From Patulibacter minatonensis DSM 18081 (GTDB taxonomy: Bacteria > Actinomycetota > Thermoleophilia > Solirubrobacterales > Solirubrobacteraceae): a stretch of DNA of 64,000 nt. Position 1 is the first letter of the stretch. Each line of letters opens with the position of its first letter. The notes under the pieces are model-generated. The model was not told where the DNA came from, did no database searches, and saw only the letters and a list, made by a program, of their open reading frames with translations. A program made the translations under genes and the position numbers. The stretch spans positions 730,935 through 794,934 of the forward strand of contig NZ_KI912613.1 in NCBI RefSeq assembly GCF_000519325.1. Reading direction: 5' to 3'. This document shows positions 57,207 to 62,665 of this stretch, piece after piece.

Positions 57207-58511
57207 ATGTCCAGCTCCTCGACCGCCGTGCCCGCGTCCCGCGCACCCGGCGACCCCACGCCCTCCGACCTGGGCGCCCGCCGGCGCCGTCACCACGGCC
57301 TCGCCTTCTGGTCGGTCGCCTTCGCGTTCCTCGTCGTGATGGCGTTCTCCACCGCGCCGAGCCCGCTCTACGGCCTCTACCAGGAGCGCGACGGCTTCTC
57401 CTCGTTCGTCGTCACCCTCGTCTACGCCGGCTACGCGGTCGGCGTCGTCGGCGCGCTCGTGTTCGCGGGGCACCTCTCCGACTGGCACGGGCGGCGGCGT
57501 GTGATGCTGCCCGCGATCGCGGTCTCCGTCCTGAGCGCGATCGTCTTCCTGCTGTGGCGCGACGTGCCCGGGCTGGTCGTCGCGCGGATCCTGAACGGCA
57601 TCTCCGTCGGGGTCGTCGCCGCGACCGCCACCGCGTACCTCGCGGAGCTCCACGCCGTCAGCCGACCGGACGCCGGGCCGCGGCACTCGCAACTCGTCGC
57701 GACGGCCGTGAACCTCGGGGGACTGGCCCTCGGTCCGATCGTCTCCGGCGTGCTCGCCCAGTGGACCGACCGGCCGCTGTCCCTGCCCTACCTCGTCTTC
57801 CTGGTCGTCCTGGTCGCCGCGATCGCCGTGGTCGCCCTGGCGCCGGAGACCCGGGACCGCCTCGACCCGCTGCCGTCGTACCGCCCGCAGCGCATCTCGG
57901 TGCCCGCGGAGTCGCGCTCCGCGTTCTCGGCCGCGGCGCTCGGCGCGTTCCTCGCGTTCGGGGTGCTCGGCCTCTTCACCGGGCTCGCGAGCGTCTTCCT
58001 CGTCGGCACGCTCCACCATCCGTCGCACGCACTGGCCGGCCTGACCCTCGCGCTCATGTTCGGCGGCGGGGTCGTCGCGCAGACCCTGACCAGCTCGTGG
58101 GCCCTGCCGCGCGTCCTCGCCGCGGGGACGGCGTCGATGCTCCTCGGCCTGACGCTCGTGGTCGTGGCGGTCTGGCTCGACACCCCGAGCCTGGCCCTCT
58201 TCCTGGCCGGGGGCGCGTTCAGCGGCGCCGGCGCCGGCGCGGTGTTCAAGGGGACCGTCGGCACCGTGGCCGCGATCGCGCCGCCCGAGACCCGCGCCGA
58301 GGCGCTCGCCGGGCTCTTCCTCGCCGGCTACCTGGGGTTGTCCGTCCCGGTCGTCGGTGCCGGCGTCGCCCTGCAGTACGCGAGCCCGAGGGCGACGCTC
58401 ACGGGCTTCGCGCTCCTCGTCGGCGGCGCGATCCTGCTGGCCGCGCCGCGACTGGTGCGCGGCCCGCGCGTGCCGACGCCGACCGGCCGGCCCGCGGGCT
58501 CCCCGGCCTGA
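57207..58511 (+). CDS. MFS transporter
   Basis: The protein has 434 residues with about twelve hydrophobic helices. The MFS loop motif occurs as GHLSDWHGRRRVMLPA between helices 2 and 3, and MVFSTAPSPL-like sequence (AFSTAPSPLYGLYQERDG) near the start. It resembles drug/sugar exporter-type MFS proteins. Under probable LysR control. Its 3' end faces a 616-base gap with tandem repeats. Confidence 0.9.
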   Translation: MSSSSTAVPASRAPGDPTPSDLGARRRRHHGLAFWSVAFAFLVVMAFSTAPSPLYGLYQERDGFSSFVVTLVYAGYAVGVVGALVFAGHLSDWHGRRRVMLPAIAVSVLSAIVFLLWRDVPGLVVARILNGISVGVVAATATAYLAELHAVSRPDAGPRHSQLVATAVNLGGLALGPIVSGVLAQWTDRPLSLPYLVFLVVLVAAIAVVALAPETRDRLDPLPSYRPQRISVPAESRSAFSAAALGAFLAFGVLGLFTGLASVFLVGTLHHPSHALAGLTLALMFGGGVVAQTLTSSWALPRVLAAGTASMLLGLTLVVVAVWLDTPSLALFLAGGAFSGAGAGAVFKGTVGTVAAIAPPETRAEALAGLFLAGYLGLSVPVVGAGVALQYASPRATLTGFALLVGGAILLAAPRLVRGPRVPTPTGRPAGSPA

Positions 58512-58572
58512 CGCCGCGACGGGTCGCGGTCGGAGCGGCGGCCGCCGGGACCGGTCGGCGGCCGTCGCGGAC

Positions 58573-58615
58573 GTGGTCGCGAAACGAACGCCCCGAGAGG
58601 CCGAAGGCCGACCAC
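58573..58615. repeat. Single palindromic unit related to array A, inverted
   Basis: GTGGTCGCGAAACG...GGCCGACCAC, read on the other strand, matches array A (GTGGTCGGCCTTCGGCC at one end and TCGCGACCAC at the other, same 43-base length). The middle is diverged. It shows that the array A element is a dispersed family, here 19 kb away. Confidence 0.75.
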
Positions 58616-58650
58616 CCCGCGGGCAGCCGTGCCAGCGGGCCAGGGGGGCC

Positions 58651-59062
58651 GGCGTTCCTCGTCGGGTTGTGTACCGCAAAGGTTCCGAACCCGACGCGGA
58701 GCGTGGGCGGCCGGCGGGCGGGCGTTCCGCGTCGAGTTGTGTACCGCAGAGGTTCCAAACCCGACGCAAAGCGTGGGCCGCCGGCGGGCCGACGTTCCTC
58801 GTCGGGTTGTGTACCGCAGAGGTTCCGAACCCGACGCGGAGCGTGGGCGGCCGGCGGGCGGGCGTTCAGCGTCGAGTTGTGTACCGCAGAGGTTCCAAAC
58901 CCGACGCGAAGCGTGGGCCGCCGGCGGGCCGACGTTCCTCGTCGGGTTGTGTACCGCGAGAGGTTCCAAACCGACGCGGAGCGTGGGCGGCCGGCGGGCG
59001 GCGTTCCGCGTCGAGTTGTGTACCGCAGAGGTTCCGAAGTCGATGCGAGGCGGGGGCGGCCC
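58651..59062. repeat. Tandem palindromic repeat array D, 6 x 70 bases
   Basis: GTTGTGTACCGC recurs at 58666, 58736, 58806, 58876, 58946 and 59015 (period 70, last 69). Each unit has arms CGTCGGGTT...AACCCGACG (alternate units CGTCGAGTT) around about 19 bases. Two unit types alternate, so a 140-base dimer is present three times. It fills the gap between the convergent MFS and NAD-kinase-like genes; no gene is seen there. Confidence 0.93.
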
Positions 59063-59127
59063 GCCCGCCCCCGCCGCCCGGCCCCGACTGCCGGCCGCTC
59101 TCCGCCCCCGCCCGCCGACCGCCCCCG

Positions 59128-60015
59128 TCAGACCAGCACCCGCAGCCGCCGGTCCGCCACGCCGATCGTCACGCGCTGCCCCCAGTCGAGCGGGACGTGG
59201 TCGGCTTCGATGCCGTCGCCGAAGAGGACGCCGCCGTCGCCGTTCTCGCTGACGACCTCGAGCGTGTCGCCCGCCGCGAGCGCGCCCGCGGTCAGCGTCG
59301 TCGCGGTCCGCGGACCGGGCCAGGCCTCGCGCACGAACCACGCGAGCGCCGGGTCGGCCGGTCCGGGGAGCGCCAGCGGCTCGGGACGTGCGCGGTTGAT
59401 GCTTGCGGCCCAGCCGGTGGCGCCGGTCCCGGTCGTGACGATCAGGCCCGACGAGCTCTGGTGCTCCCGGCGACCGTCGGCGGCGAGCTCGTACCGCGCC
59501 GACTGGTGGCTGCGGTGCCCGAGGAACAGCTCGTTCAGCGCCGTGAGCGTCCGCCCGTCGTCGAGGGTCGCGGCGACCATGGTGCGTTCGCGGACCACCG
59601 TGCGCTCCGCGGCGACGTCGGCGCAGAGGTCCGCGGTCGCCGCCGGCGCGTGCGTGACCAGGACACCCGGGTTGAAGCCCGGGTCGGGATCCAGTCCGGC
59701 GAGCGGCTGGCCGTCCAGGTACTTCGCGACGTTGGCGACCAGGCCGTCGGGGCCGAGCACGAGGACGAGGTCGTCCTGCTCGAAGAGGAAGCGATCGAGC
59801 TCGTCGCGCCGGACCGTCGCCGTCCGCCACTCCGACGGCACCGCGCGCAGCACGGTCGCGCGGGCCTCCTCGTGGCGCAGGTGCCGCTCCTCGGTCTCCG
59901 CCAGGTCGAGCCCGCGGGTGCGGAGGAAGAACCGCGCCTGCTCCCGCGTGCCGTGCCGTTGCAGCAGCTCCTGCAGCTCGGTGGGACGCTCGACGAGGAC
60001 GGCACGGCGCAGCAC
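59128..60015 (-). CDS. NAD-kinase-like protein
   Basis: The protein has 295 residues from a GTG. After a helical N-terminus (1-75), the fold resembles ATP-NAD kinases: VLVLGPDGLVANVAKYL stands where GGDG occurs, NELFLGHRS for the NE motif, and SGLIVTTGTGATGWAASI for the Gly-rich TPTGSTAY-like loop. GGDG is replaced by LGPDG, so activity may be altered. The gene follows the SPFH gene by 3 bases. Possible roles: phosphorylating NAD or a lipid/sugar substrate at a membrane microdomain. Confidence 0.72.
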   Translation of the reverse strand: MLRRAVLVERPTELQELLQRHGTREQARFFLRTRGLDLAETEERHLRHEEARATVLRAVPSEWRTATVRRDELDRFLFEQDDLVLVLGPDGLVANVAKYLDGQPLAGLDPDPGFNPGVLVTHAPAATADLCADVAAERTVVRERTMVAATLDDGRTLTALNELFLGHRSHQSARYELAADGRREHQSSSGLIVTTGTGATGWAASINRARPEPLALPGPADPALAWFVREAWPGPRTATTLTAGALAAGDTLEVVSENGDGGVLFGDGIEADHVPLDWGQRVTIGVADRRLRVLV

Positions 60016-60018
60016 GGC

Positions 60019-61041
60019 TCACCCCTCCGTCCGGCGGGTGGCGTCGCCCGCGGCGGCGAGGCCGCCCAGGAGGGGCTGGAGCAGGTCGGGCGTGATGGTC
60101 AGGTGCTCCACCTTGCCGATCTCGCCGGCCAGCTGCTGCAGCGCCAGGGCGAGCAGCACCTGCGGCCCGGCCTCCGCCTGGATGCGGGTGCGCTCGGTCT
60201 CGGCGCGGAGCTTCGCGGCCTCGACCGCGTCGATCGTCGCGGCGCGGCGATCGAGCTCGAGCCGTCCGCGCTCGTCGGCGGCCTGCGCCTCGACGAGCGC
60301 CGCGGCCGCCTCCTCCTCCGCGGTCTGCCGGCGGTTCTGGCCCTCCTGCCGGACGAGCTCCTCCTGCTGCCGGGCGAGCTCCACGCGGTTCTGCAGCTCG
60401 TTCTCCGCGATCGCGCGCTCGTTCTGGACGGCGAGCGCCCGGCGCTGGAACGTCGCGCCGTCGGCCTCCTGCTGGATCACCTCGCGGGCCGGGCGCTGCA
60501 GGGCCTGCTCGACCTCGGCGGTCGGCGCGACGTCGGCGACGCGGACGGCGACGACCTCGAGCCCGAGATCCCGCACGGCGGCCTCACCGGCCAGTCCGAT
60601 CCCGATCCGGTCGCGGATCGGCGCGACGCCGTCCTGGAGGATCCGCCGCAGGTCCATGCCGACGAGCTCGTCGGTGACGAACTGCTGGGCGAGCTGCGTG
60701 AGGAGCCCCGCGACCTGTTCCATCGGGTTCTCGTTCAGGCGGCCGGTCGCGAGGTCGAGCGTGAAGTCGATGCGCGCCGCGACGAGCGCCGGGTCCGTGA
60801 CGCGGTAGGTGATGGCGCCCTGGACCGTCAGCTCCTGGAAGTCGCGGCTGCGGGCCCGGAAGAGGAACGGCAGCTCGCGGTCGTCGACCGGGACCTCGGT
60901 GACCGTCGTGTTCGTCGTGCGGAACCAGAACGCGAGGCCGTTGCCGGCGCGGACCGGCTTCCCGCCGCGGAAGCGCTGCACGTGCACCGTGGGCTCGGCC
61001 CGGAGGTGCCGGAGGAGGGGGTACGTCTTGATCTCGGCCAT
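60019..61041 (-). CDS. SPFH/Band 7 domain protein
   Basis: The protein has 340 residues. The SPFH domain (about 15-200) includes VPVDDRELPFLFRARSRDFQ, QGAITYRVTDPALVAAR and QQFVTDELVGMDLRRILQDG. A long charged coiled-coil (about 200-310; LARQQEELVRQEGQNRRQTA) follows. There is no obvious membrane helix, unlike most stomatins. Such proteins form rings or scaffolds. Paired with the NAD-kinase-like gene and transcribed from a good sigma-70-type promoter. Confidence 0.87.
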   Translation of the reverse strand: MAEIKTYPLLRHLRAEPTVHVQRFRGGKPVRAGNGLAFWFRTTNTTVTEVPVDDRELPFLFRARSRDFQELTVQGAITYRVTDPALVAARIDFTLDLATGRLNENPMEQVAGLLTQLAQQFVTDELVGMDLRRILQDGVAPIRDRIGIGLAGEAAVRDLGLEVVAVRVADVAPTAEVEQALQRPAREVIQQEADGATFQRRALAVQNERAIAENELQNRVELARQQEELVRQEGQNRRQTAEEEAAAALVEAQAADERGRLELDRRAATIDAVEAAKLRAETERTRIQAEAGPQVLLALALQQLAGEIGKVEHLTITPDLLQPLLGGLAAAGDATRRTEG

Positions 61042-61078
61042 CTGCTCTTCTCGTTTCTTGTCGTATTGACTTTTTTAC

Positions 61079-61107
61079 AATCTAGAGCGCCGCCGGCGAG
61101 CCGTCAA
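61079..61107 (-). promoter_or_regulatory. Promoter of the SPFH/NAD-kinase-like operon
   Basis: Read on the minus strand, TTGACG (complement of 61102-61107) and TAGATT (complement of 61079-61084) are 17 bases apart, near consensus. The surrounding 61045-61135 stretch is unusually A/T-rich. It also holds the upstream region of the divergent Nudix-HTH gene. Confidence 0.65.
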
Positions 61108-61184
61108 GGCTTTTTGGTCATTTCGCCATAAACTTGCTCGGCGGCCTTCCGCGGCGGCCCCCGCTGCACTACGCTGGCCTCCGG

Positions 61185-61955
61185 ATGACGGTGGACGCGG
61201 ACACGGGCGGGGAGTCGCGGGTGAGGCCCGCGACGCCGGACGTCCCGGGCGCCCAGGGGTCCGCGCCCCCGCCACCCGGGACGTGGTCCGCGCAGAACAG
61301 CGCGGGGTACCCGAGCCCGGCGGGGCTCACCGCCGACGTCGTCGTCCTGACGGTGCGGGACGGGGCGGTCCGGGTGCTCGCCCTGACCACGGACGACGGG
61401 CGCGTCGCGCTCCCCGGCGGGTTCGTCGGCGCCGGCGAGGACCCCGCGGACACCGCGGCGCGCAAGCTGACGGAGAAGACCGGCCTGCGGGACCTCTACC
61501 TCGAGCAGCTCGGCGCGTTCGCCGCCCCCGGCCGCGACCCCCGGGGGTGGATCCCGACGGTCGCCCACCTCGCGCTCGTCCCGGCGGACACGACACCGGG
61601 CGATCCCGCGGCCGCGTGGATCGACGCGCGGGCCGCGCACGACTGGGCTTTCGACCACCGCGAGATCCTGGCCGCCGCCCTCGAGCGCGTCGAGGGGAAG
61701 CTCTGGTGGTCGAACGTCTGCGTGGGCGTCCTGCCGGGCGACTTCGCGCTCGCCGACGCCCGCGCGGTCTACGACGCCGTCGCGAGGACCACCTACGACC
61801 CGGGCACGTTCGCCCGCGACCTGCGCGCCACCGGCCTGATCGAGCCGACCGGCGAAGAACGGCGCGCAGGCAAGGGTCGCCCGGCGGCCCTCTACCGCTT
61901 CGCGTCGCGCGAGCCCGCGTGGGGCGCGGGACGTCGCAAGCGCGTGAAGGCCTGA
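61185..61955 (+). CDS. Nudix-domain regulator, NrtR-like
   Basis: The protein has 256 residues from ATG at 61185, 9 bases after TACGCT (likely -10). The N-terminus is Pro-rich; a Nudix fold (about 40-160) has ALPGGFVGAGEDPADTAARK, where the Nudix box Glu residues are degenerate (KLTEKTG rather than REExxEExG). A winged-helix C-terminus (about 180-250; YDPGTFARDLRATGLIEP, GKGRPAALYRF) is typical of NrtR. NrtR proteins sense ADP-ribose and control NAD metabolism. It diverges from the SPFH/NAD-kinase-like pair. Confidence 0.83.
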   Translation: MTVDADTGGESRVRPATPDVPGAQGSAPPPPGTWSAQNSAGYPSPAGLTADVVVLTVRDGAVRVLALTTDDGRVALPGGFVGAGEDPADTAARKLTEKTGLRDLYLEQLGAFAAPGRDPRGWIPTVAHLALVPADTTPGDPAAAWIDARAAHDWAFDHREILAAALERVEGKLWWSNVCVGVLPGDFALADARAVYDAVARTTYDPGTFARDLRATGLIEPTGEERRAGKGRPAALYRFASREPAWGAGRRKRVKA

Positions 61956-61990
61956 CCGGCGCCGCCCGGCCCGCGGGCTACGCTGCGCCG

Positions 61991-62665
61991 ATGCCCCCGT
62001 CCGCACCGGACCCGGACCCCGCCCCGGGAGCGCCGGCGCGCGGGGACCGCCCGCCGGAGCCCGCCGCCCCGGACGCGCCGCCCGTCCCGCCGGGCCTCCC
62101 GGACGCGGCCGCAGCGCCCGCCCCGGCCGGGCGTCCCGCCACGACCGATCGTCCCGGTCCGGCCGGCCACCGCGAGCGCCCCTCCCCGGGGGCGCTGGCC
62201 GAGCACCTGCGCGAGCGCGTCTACGGGACCGTCGCGGTGCTCGCGTCGATCCTCACGCTGCTGGACCCGGGCCACGAGGGCGACGCCGTGGGCGCGGCCG
62301 TGACGCTCGTGGTCACGGTGGTGGCGCTGTGGGCCGCGAGCCTCTTCGCGGACCTGACCGCCCACCTCGCCGTGCACCAGCGGCTGCCGGACCGCGGCGC
62401 CACCCGGTCGCTCCTCTCGAGCCACCACCAGATCCTCGTCGTGGCCGTCGTGCCGGCGCTCCTCGTCCTCAGCACGGAGACGGGGTGGTGGGAGGCCCAC
62501 ACCGCGCTCGGGTGGGCGGCGGCCGTCCAGGTCCTGACCCTCGCGCTCGTCGGCGGGCTCGCGGTGCGCGGGACCCGGATCCCGTTCTGGGGCCGGCTCG
62601 TCGTCGTGGCGGGCGTCGTCGGCCTCGGGCTCCTGGTCGTCGGGATCAAGCTCCTGACGCACTGA
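61991..62665 (+). CDS. Hypothetical polytopic membrane protein
   Basis: The protein has 224 residues from an ATG 5 bases after TACGCT, a likely leaderless start. A 70-residue Pro/Ala-rich cytosolic N-terminus is followed by about five membrane helices (VYGTVAVLASILTLL, AAVTLVVTVVALWAASLFA, ILVVAVVPALLVLS, AAAVQVLTLALVGGLAV, VVVAGVVGLGLLVVGIKLL). No family recognised. The first helix pair carries conserved-looking polar residues (LFADLTAHLAVH). Confidence 0.72.
   Translation: MPPSAPDPDPAPGAPARGDRPPEPAAPDAPPVPPGLPDAAAAPAPAGRPATTDRPGPAGHRERPSPGALAEHLRERVYGTVAVLASILTLLDPGHEGDAVGAAVTLVVTVVALWAASLFADLTAHLAVHQRLPDRGATRSLLSSHHQILVVAVVPALLVLSTETGWWEAHTALGWAAAVQVLTLALVGGLAVRGTRIPFWGRLVVVAGVVGLGLLVVGIKLLTH

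What the first reader, a model, noticed from the sequence alone, without database searches (positions are those of the whole stretch)
59128..61955. SPFH + NAD-kinase-like pair divergent from a Nudix-HTH regulator
Three genes with links to NAD or ADP-ribose metabolism share one A/T-rich control region. The kinase-like protein has an altered GGDG motif and the Nudix box is degenerate, as in ligand-sensing NrtR. A membrane scaffold controlling a nucleotide-modifying enzyme under an ADP-ribose sensor could be a stress or defence module.
Basis: inference. Interest (0 to 1): 0.6.

Follow-up and report, generated by a model that had tools for sequence, protein, structure and literature searches.

The report
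NrtR-controlled SPFH and NAD-kinase-like pair
[quoted passage not shown] its job in the cell is still unknown.

Summary
The three genes are real and belong together. An SPFH protein (60019-61041, -) and a kinase-like protein (59128-60015, -) form a near-overlapping pair, divergent from a Nudix-winged-helix NrtR regulator (61185-61955, +). SPFH stands beside the kinase in all 100 kinase-family loci examined, across Actinomycetota, Planctomycetota, Acidobacteriota, Myxococcota and Pseudomonadota; the regulator lies in the same fetched locus in 69. A distant version sits on Rhizobium etli plasmid p42f.

The kinase is closest to human mitochondrial NADK2. Its GGDG motif reads G-Q/P-DG family-wide; the catalytic Asp is invariant. 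The SPFH protein has no transmembrane helix. Two palindromes in helical phase (about 34, 45 or 57 bp apart) bracket the promoter. In Streptomyces, where the regulator gene is unlinked, its promoter carries the same operator. In the window's genome the operator pattern matches only here, so the regulator looks dedicated.

Best reading: an NrtR-repressed module, induced by ADP-ribose or a related NAD fragment, making a soluble SPFH assembly with an NADK2-type kinase. Ligand, substrate and physical contact are inferred. Defence has no support. I found no published description, but the founding NrtR regulon paper was unavailable to me.

The parts
59128..60015 (-). NADK2-like kinase-family protein (295 aa, GTG start), second gene of the pair
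   Evidence: Best solved relative human NADK2: phmmer 4e-10, profile 1.8e-18, VIA-align Z 25.5 on an AF2 model of pLDDT 93. No Pfam or NCBIfam model passes its cut-off.
59743..59754 (-). G-P-D-G motif (residues 88-91), in place of GGDG
   Evidence: 97-member alignment: position 89 is Q in 88 and P in 9; G88, D90, G91 invariant
60019..61041 (-). Soluble SPFH/Band-7 protein (340 aa), first gene of the pair; its stop codon lies 3 bp from the kinase start
   Evidence: Band_7 1.4e-14; AF2 model matches HflC/HflK, stomatin, prohibitin, erlin, major vault protein; no transmembrane segment
61055..61075 (.). Proximal NrtR-type operator, minus-strand AAAAAGTCAATACGACAAGAA
   Evidence: Core GKC-RNNNY-GMC in register with relatives; weak on its own (9 of 16 consensus bases, not above shuffles)
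61079..61084 (-). Predicted -10 box TAGATT of the SPFH-kinase promoter
   Evidence: 17 bp from the -35 box; read from the sequence
61102..61107 (-). Predicted -35 box TTGACG
   Evidence: read from the sequence; similar TTGAC-N17/18-TA pairs in L002, L004, L007 (sequences)
61112..61132 (.). Distal NrtR-type operator, minus-strand TTTATGGCGAAATGACCAAAA
   Evidence: 13 of 16 consensus bases; shuffle 95th percentile 10; only 0-mismatch match in the 5.52 Mb genome
61185..61955 (+). NrtR-family regulator: degenerate Nudix domain plus NrtR winged helix (homologues start near residue 33)
   Evidence: NrtR_WHD 3.5e-12 and NUDIX 4.4e-10, both above cut-off; solved relatives AraR 5bs6, Shewanella NrtR 3gz5
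61419..61487 (+). Degenerate Nudix box GFVGAGEDPADTAARKLTEKTGL
   Evidence: Two catalytic Glu replaced by Lys; Shewanella NrtR shows the same R-K-L-x-E-K-T pattern

Best explanation
A dedicated, ligand-relieved repressor module. NrtR dimers bind two operators in helical phase around the divergent promoter and repress the spfh-kinase operon and nrtR itself. ADP-ribose, or a closely related fragment or derivative of NAD, binds the inactive Nudix domain and releases the DNA. The cell then co-produces a soluble SPFH protein, which assembles into a ring or cage through its long C-terminal helix, and an NADK2-type kinase held on it, which phosphorylates NAD(H) or a related adenosine-ribose compound at the 2'-OH. 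The module would thus adjust the NADP(H)/NAD(H) pool, or clear an NAD breakdown product, under conditions that consume NAD. Shown by comparison: gene unit, regulator family, operators and their sharing with unlinked regulator genes, kinase fold and kept catalytic residues, soluble SPFH fold. Inferred: ligand, direction of regulation, substrate, physical contact, physiological role.
For: SPFH beside the kinase in 100 of 100 family loci, regulator in the same locus in 69. In 396 genomes of the phylum, 13 have both, 1 has SPFH only and that gene runs into a contig end. Gene gap mostly -4 to +10 bp. Protein distances agree: Mantel r 0.92 kinase-SPFH, 0.79 with NrtR. Two palindromes in 45 of 45 divergent actinomycete loci; spacing 33-35 in 42, 44-48 in 19, 56-58 in 5 of 70 loci. 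Unlinked Streptomyces nrtR promoters carry the same operator in 6 of 6 genomes (14 of 16 bases; shuffled maxima 10-11), and so does Plantactinospora (15 of 16). The window genome has no other operator-like site within 1 mismatch. The residues reported essential in Mtb PpnK, D85, N159, E160 and T200, are kept as D90, N161, E162 and T200; Y202 is W, as in NADK2 (PMC8553519). ADP-ribose relieves characterised NrtRs (PMC6800001; PMC4666351).
Against: The family-wide G-Q/P-DG change and Asp-to-Ser in region II could change or abolish activity. The genome has a normal NAD kinase, so the pair is not needed for bulk NADP. NrtR relatives can sense other ligands (L-arabinose for AraR; NAD for NdnR). No direct evidence of SPFH-kinase binding. 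The window's proximal operator is weak by itself.
Confidence: 0.5

Rival explanations
1. Pseudokinase sensor: the NADK2-like protein no longer transfers phosphate but binds NAD(P)(H) or ADP-ribose and thereby controls the SPFH assembly.
For: The second Gly of the phosphate-binding GGDG loop is Gln or Pro in all 97 relatives, while the rest of the pocket is strongly conserved, as expected of a binding protein.
Against: The catalytic Asp, the NE pair and T200 are invariant or nearly so, more than a binding-only protein needs; NADK2 itself shares the Ser and Trp changes and is an active enzyme.
Confidence: 0.2
2. The kinase acts on a substrate other than NAD, for example ADP-ribose, giving 2'-phospho-ADP-ribose and removing the very ligand that NrtR senses.
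For: The nicotinamide-side Asp of classical NAD kinases (D189 in Mtb) is Ser here; the regulator family senses ADP-ribose; this would close a feedback loop. The R. etli homologue is annotated 'sugar kinase', which shows only that the annotation is unsettled.
Against: NADK2 carries the same Ser and uses NAD, so the change does not point to a new substrate. No direct evidence.
Confidence: 0.15
3. Anti-phage or other conflict module triggered by NAD cleavage, comparable to the Nudix-HTH-regulated ADP-ribose systems predicted by Iyer and colleagues (PMC9503650).
For: Patchy distribution, five phyla, presence on plasmids, a Nudix-HTH regulator.
Against: No PADLOC family, no phage homologue, no effector or defence neighbour recurs in 80 loci, slow and congruent evolution of all three proteins.
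Confidence: 0.07
4. Ordinary NAD-biosynthesis regulation, with the SPFH-kinase pair as one of several NrtR targets.
For: Known NrtRs control nadABC, pncB, pnuC and similar genes (PMC6800001).
Against: No second operator-like site within 1 mismatch in the genome and only one NrtR_WHD protein. In Streptomyces the first NrtR paralogue has a different operator (TTATAGTC type).
Confidence: 0.08

Closest known systems
NrtR regulons of NAD metabolism (Shewanella, M. smegmatis MsNrtR, Corynebacterium NdnR)
   Same: Regulator architecture, impaired Nudix box, divergent autoregulated promoter, palindromic AT-armed operator near 21-23 bp (MsNrtR: GTTTTCGA-N7-TCGAAAAC)
   Different: Targets here are an SPFH protein and an NADK2-like kinase, not NAD synthesis genes; paired operators in helical phase; apparently a dedicated local regulator
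Human mitochondrial NAD kinase NADK2 (C5orf33, MNADK)
   Same: Closest solved relative in sequence and fold; NE motif, SSG and TGTG..W segment
   Different: G-Q/P-DG instead of GGDG; bacterial; translationally coupled to SPFH; activity untested
Soluble SPFH subfamilies SPFH8/SPFH9 of Hinderhofer 2009 (PMC2636767)
   Same: SPFH domain with long C-terminal helix and no transmembrane segment; no documented function
   Different: That paper reports no conserved partner genes for these groups; assignment to SPFH8 or SPFH9 was not tested because their models were not available
SPFH-NfeD operons and HflK/C-FtsH
   Same: SPFH protein co-encoded with, or bound to, an enzyme or partner; ring/cage assembly by the homologues
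   Different: Partner is a nucleotide kinase; no NfeD, no protease, no membrane anchor
Nudix-HTH or WYL regulated ADP-ribose response systems (Iyer 2022, PMC9503650)
   Same: Operon repressed by a Nudix-HTH factor thought to sense ADP-ribose
   Different: No ARG domain, phosphatase or chaperone here; SPFH and NAD kinase are not mentioned in that paper

Membership tests
NrtR family | N-terminal Nudix domain plus C-terminal NrtR winged helix | tested here: met
   PF00293 and PF21906 above cut-off; all 29 aligned relatives match both
NrtR family | Impaired Nudix catalytic box | tested here: met
   RKLTEKTGL in the window; not universal in relatives
NrtR family | Palindromic operator in its own promoter and that of its target | tested here: met
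   (by sequence; binding not assayed)
NrtR family | Ligand ADP-ribose relieves DNA binding | not testable with these tools
   needs a gel shift
NAD kinase (NADK2 type) | NAD kinase fold | tested here: met
   Z 25.5, rmsd 3.2, 278 aligned residues to 7r4l
NAD kinase (NADK2 type) | GGDG motif | tested here: not met
   G-Q/P-DG in all 97 relatives; the Asp is kept
NAD kinase (NADK2 type) | NE/D motif and region II Thr | tested here: met
   N161 97/97, E162 95/97 (Asp in 2), T200 97/97
NAD kinase (NADK2 type) | Phosphorylates NAD(H) | not testable with these tools
   needs an enzyme assay
SPFH superfamily | Band_7/SPFH domain followed by a long helix | tested here: met
   PF01145 1.4e-14; AF2 helix 175-290, matches to HflC, stomatin, MVP
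Membrane-anchored SPFH scaffolds (flotillin, HflK/C, stomatin) | N-terminal transmembrane or hairpin segment | tested here: not met
   highest 19-residue Kyte-Doolittle mean 1.25; family median 1.19
Known anti-phage systems | Match to a catalogued defence protein | tested here: not met
   No PADLOC family for any of the three

The most novel reading that the evidence does not exclude
A previously undescribed bacterial nucleotide-signalling module: a soluble SPFH cage that houses an NADK2-type kinase phosphorylating ADP-ribose or NAD in response to NAD breakdown, with the NrtR ligand being the kinase's substrate or product.
Probability: 0.2. Interest if true: 0.85.

Novelty: new variant of a known kind. 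Interest (0 to 1): 0.56.

Why it matters
SPFH proteins are known mainly as membrane microdomain scaffolds, and their soluble bacterial subgroups have no documented function. A conserved soluble SPFH protein tied to one enzyme family, under a dedicated regulator whose relatives sense ADP-ribose, makes an SPFH-enzyme partnership directly testable in vitro. It also names bacterial relatives of human NADK2 and predicts that NAD breakdown is answered by a local response separate from NAD synthesis.

Tried and rejected
Extra conserved neighbours: none; the only cluster seen in more than 6 of 80 loci was an ABC-transporter ATPase, expected by chance of abundance. Defence families: none. Phage homologues: none. 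RNA elements in 58400-62100: none in Rfam. The Actinomycetes consensus TTATCGTC-N5-GACGATAA is not found upstream of SPFH where nrtR is co-directional; there the palindromes, if any, precede nrtR and look different. An operator shared with the unlinked NrtR homologues in Solirubrobacter (L118-L121) was looked for and not found, so what controls the pair there is open. R. etli intergenic palindromes are only 6 of 8 self-complementary, too weak to call. Seven specific literature searches for this gene set returned no report. Rodionov 2008, the founding NrtR paper, is not held, so a mention there cannot be excluded.

Full report
What is there. The window lies in a 5.52 Mb single-contig genome whose nearest named relatives of these genes are Solirubrobacter and Svornostia. 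The three reported genes are present at the stated coordinates. The SPFH protein has a Band_7 domain (E 1.4e-14). The Nudix protein has NUDIX and NrtR_WHD domains above cut-off. The kinase-like protein passes no curated Pfam or NCBIfam cut-off, and neither does its family.

Conservation. In the window's own genus and family, only 6 of 61 genomes carry the SPFH orthologue; the kinase stands next to it in all 6 and the regulator in 5. Together with the whole-genome loci, 100 of 100 true kinase loci carry the SPFH gene and 69 carry the NrtR gene within the fetched DNA; a few of these loci are the same place fetched twice. Orientation differs: NrtR is divergent in Actinomycetota, and mostly upstream and co-directional in Planctomycetota, Acidobacteriota, Myxococcota and Pseudomonadota. 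In a sample of 396 genomes of the phylum, the SPFH profile finds 14 genomes and the kinase profile finds 13 of the same ones. The exception is a gene cut by the end of its contig. No other gene recurs beside the unit. The gap between SPFH and kinase genes is mostly -4 to +10 bp. Pairwise protein distances agree strongly: Mantel r 0.92 for kinase against SPFH and 0.79 for each against NrtR, while permutations stay below 0.17. Distant members lie on plasmids, including the divergent Nudix / SPFH / 'sugar kinase' set on Rhizobium etli CFN 42 p42f and a Cupriavidus set. A kinase tree mixes phyla in several places, which fits but does not prove transfer.

The kinase. Its best solved relative is human mitochondrial NADK2: phmmer 4e-10, profile 1.8e-18 against 1.7e-8 for the best classical NAD kinase, and structural Z 25.5 against 22 for an AlphaFold2 model of mean pLDDT 93. 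Of the residues reported essential in M. tuberculosis PpnK (D85, N159, E160, T200, Y202; PMC8553519), the first four correspond to D90, N161, E162 and T200 here, invariant or nearly so in 97 relatives; Y202 is Trp, as in NADK2 (residue correspondence for region II is my own reading of the motif). The GGDG motif is G-Q-DG in 88 and G-P-DG in 9 of the 97, the window having Pro. Whether it changes the phosphate donor, the acceptor or abolishes activity cannot be told from sequence. The genome has a separate classical NAD kinase.

The SPFH protein. The AlphaFold2 model (mean pLDDT 86, pTM 0.56) has an SPFH domain and one helix of about 115 residues, and matches HflC/HflK, stomatin, erlins, prohibitin and major vault protein. 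No stretch is hydrophobic enough for a membrane helix. It is therefore predicted to be soluble. Hinderhofer et al. (PMC2636767) list two soluble SPFH subfamilies (8 and 9) without documented members or conserved partner genes; which of these this protein belongs to was not tested.

The control region. In 45 of 45 divergent loci outside the window's family, two 21-bp palindromes TTATCGTC-N5-GACGATAA lie between the genes, with scores of 12 to 16 out of 16 against shuffled 95th percentiles of 9 to 11. The consensus was taken from these same loci, so the scores are descriptive. In the window's relatives the form is TTTTGGTC-N5-GACCAAAA. The distance between the two sites falls in three classes, 33-35, 44-48 and 56-58 bp (42, 19 and 5 of 70 loci), as expected if two dimers must sit on the same face of the helix. 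In the window the sites are 57 bp apart and flank TTGACG-N17-TAGATT. The window's distal site is strong (13 of 16); the proximal one is weak by itself (9 of 16) and rests on its core and position. An independent test is given by genomes where nrtR is not next to the pair: in six of six Streptomyces-like genomes (one genus, g79; the name is my inference) an unlinked nrtR homologue has the same operator upstream of it (14 of 16; shuffled maxima 10-11), and Plantactinospora shows 15 of 16. The same test was negative for three Solirubrobacter genomes and G019. In the window's genome the pattern with at most 1 mismatch hits only these two sites; the reversed control pattern hits once per strand. 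The pattern was shaped partly by these sites, so it is their uniqueness, not their presence, that is informative. The genome has one NrtR_WHD protein. The regulator thus looks dedicated to this locus.

How it most likely works. From characterised NrtRs, which release DNA on binding ADP-ribose and often have an impaired Nudix box (PMC6800001, PMC4666351), I infer that the unit is off by default and is induced when ADP-ribose or a related compound rises. The window's box has lost two catalytic Glu, so it is more likely a sensor than an enzyme; many actinomycete relatives keep an intact box and may also hydrolyse their ligand. Co-translation of SPFH and kinase suggests a complex, with SPFH as a soluble ring or cage. 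The product would be NADP(H) or a phosphorylated NAD fragment. Only the genetic and structural parts of this account are shown; ligand, substrate, complex and physiology are inference.

Defence. Nudix-HTH factors do govern predicted ADP-ribose response systems (PMC9503650), and the patchy distribution would fit. But there are no defence families, no phage homologues, no variable effector genes and no fast evolution here, so I rate that reading low.

Novelty. The parts are known families; the combination was not found in nine searches of an open-licence library. The founding NrtR regulon paper is not held. I therefore call it a new variant of a known kind, with moderate confidence that it is undescribed.

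Noticed in passing
58638-59061: Six-copy 70-bp tandem array with a GTCGGGTT...AACCCGAC hairpin, directly downstream of the kinase gene. Related copies lie at about 29 places in the genome, often as short arrays: a dispersed intergenic repeat.
   Followed up: partly
L126-L129, L134, L140-L145 (unlinked nrtR loci, genus g79): These genomes carry at least two NrtR paralogues with different operator codes, TTATAGTC-type and TTATCGTC-type; only the second matches the SPFH-kinase operon.
   Followed up: partly
A6 alignment; for example L025:3079-3810, L037:3134-3853: Actinomycete members of this NrtR group keep an intact Nudix box (RELAEETG), so they could be both enzyme and sensor, unlike the window's version.
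   Followed up: no
L118-L121 (Solirubrobacter genomes and G019): The SPFH-kinase pair has strong operator-like palindromes there, yet neither a linked NrtR nor a matching operator at the unlinked homologue was found.
   Followed up: partly
L021:7200-7928: In a Holophagaceae bin the NrtR gene lies downstream of the pair instead of upstream.
   Followed up: no
L149:1162-2820: On a Streptomyces yangpuensis plasmid a von Willebrand factor A protein precedes the SPFH-kinase pair; not seen as recurrent.
   Followed up: no
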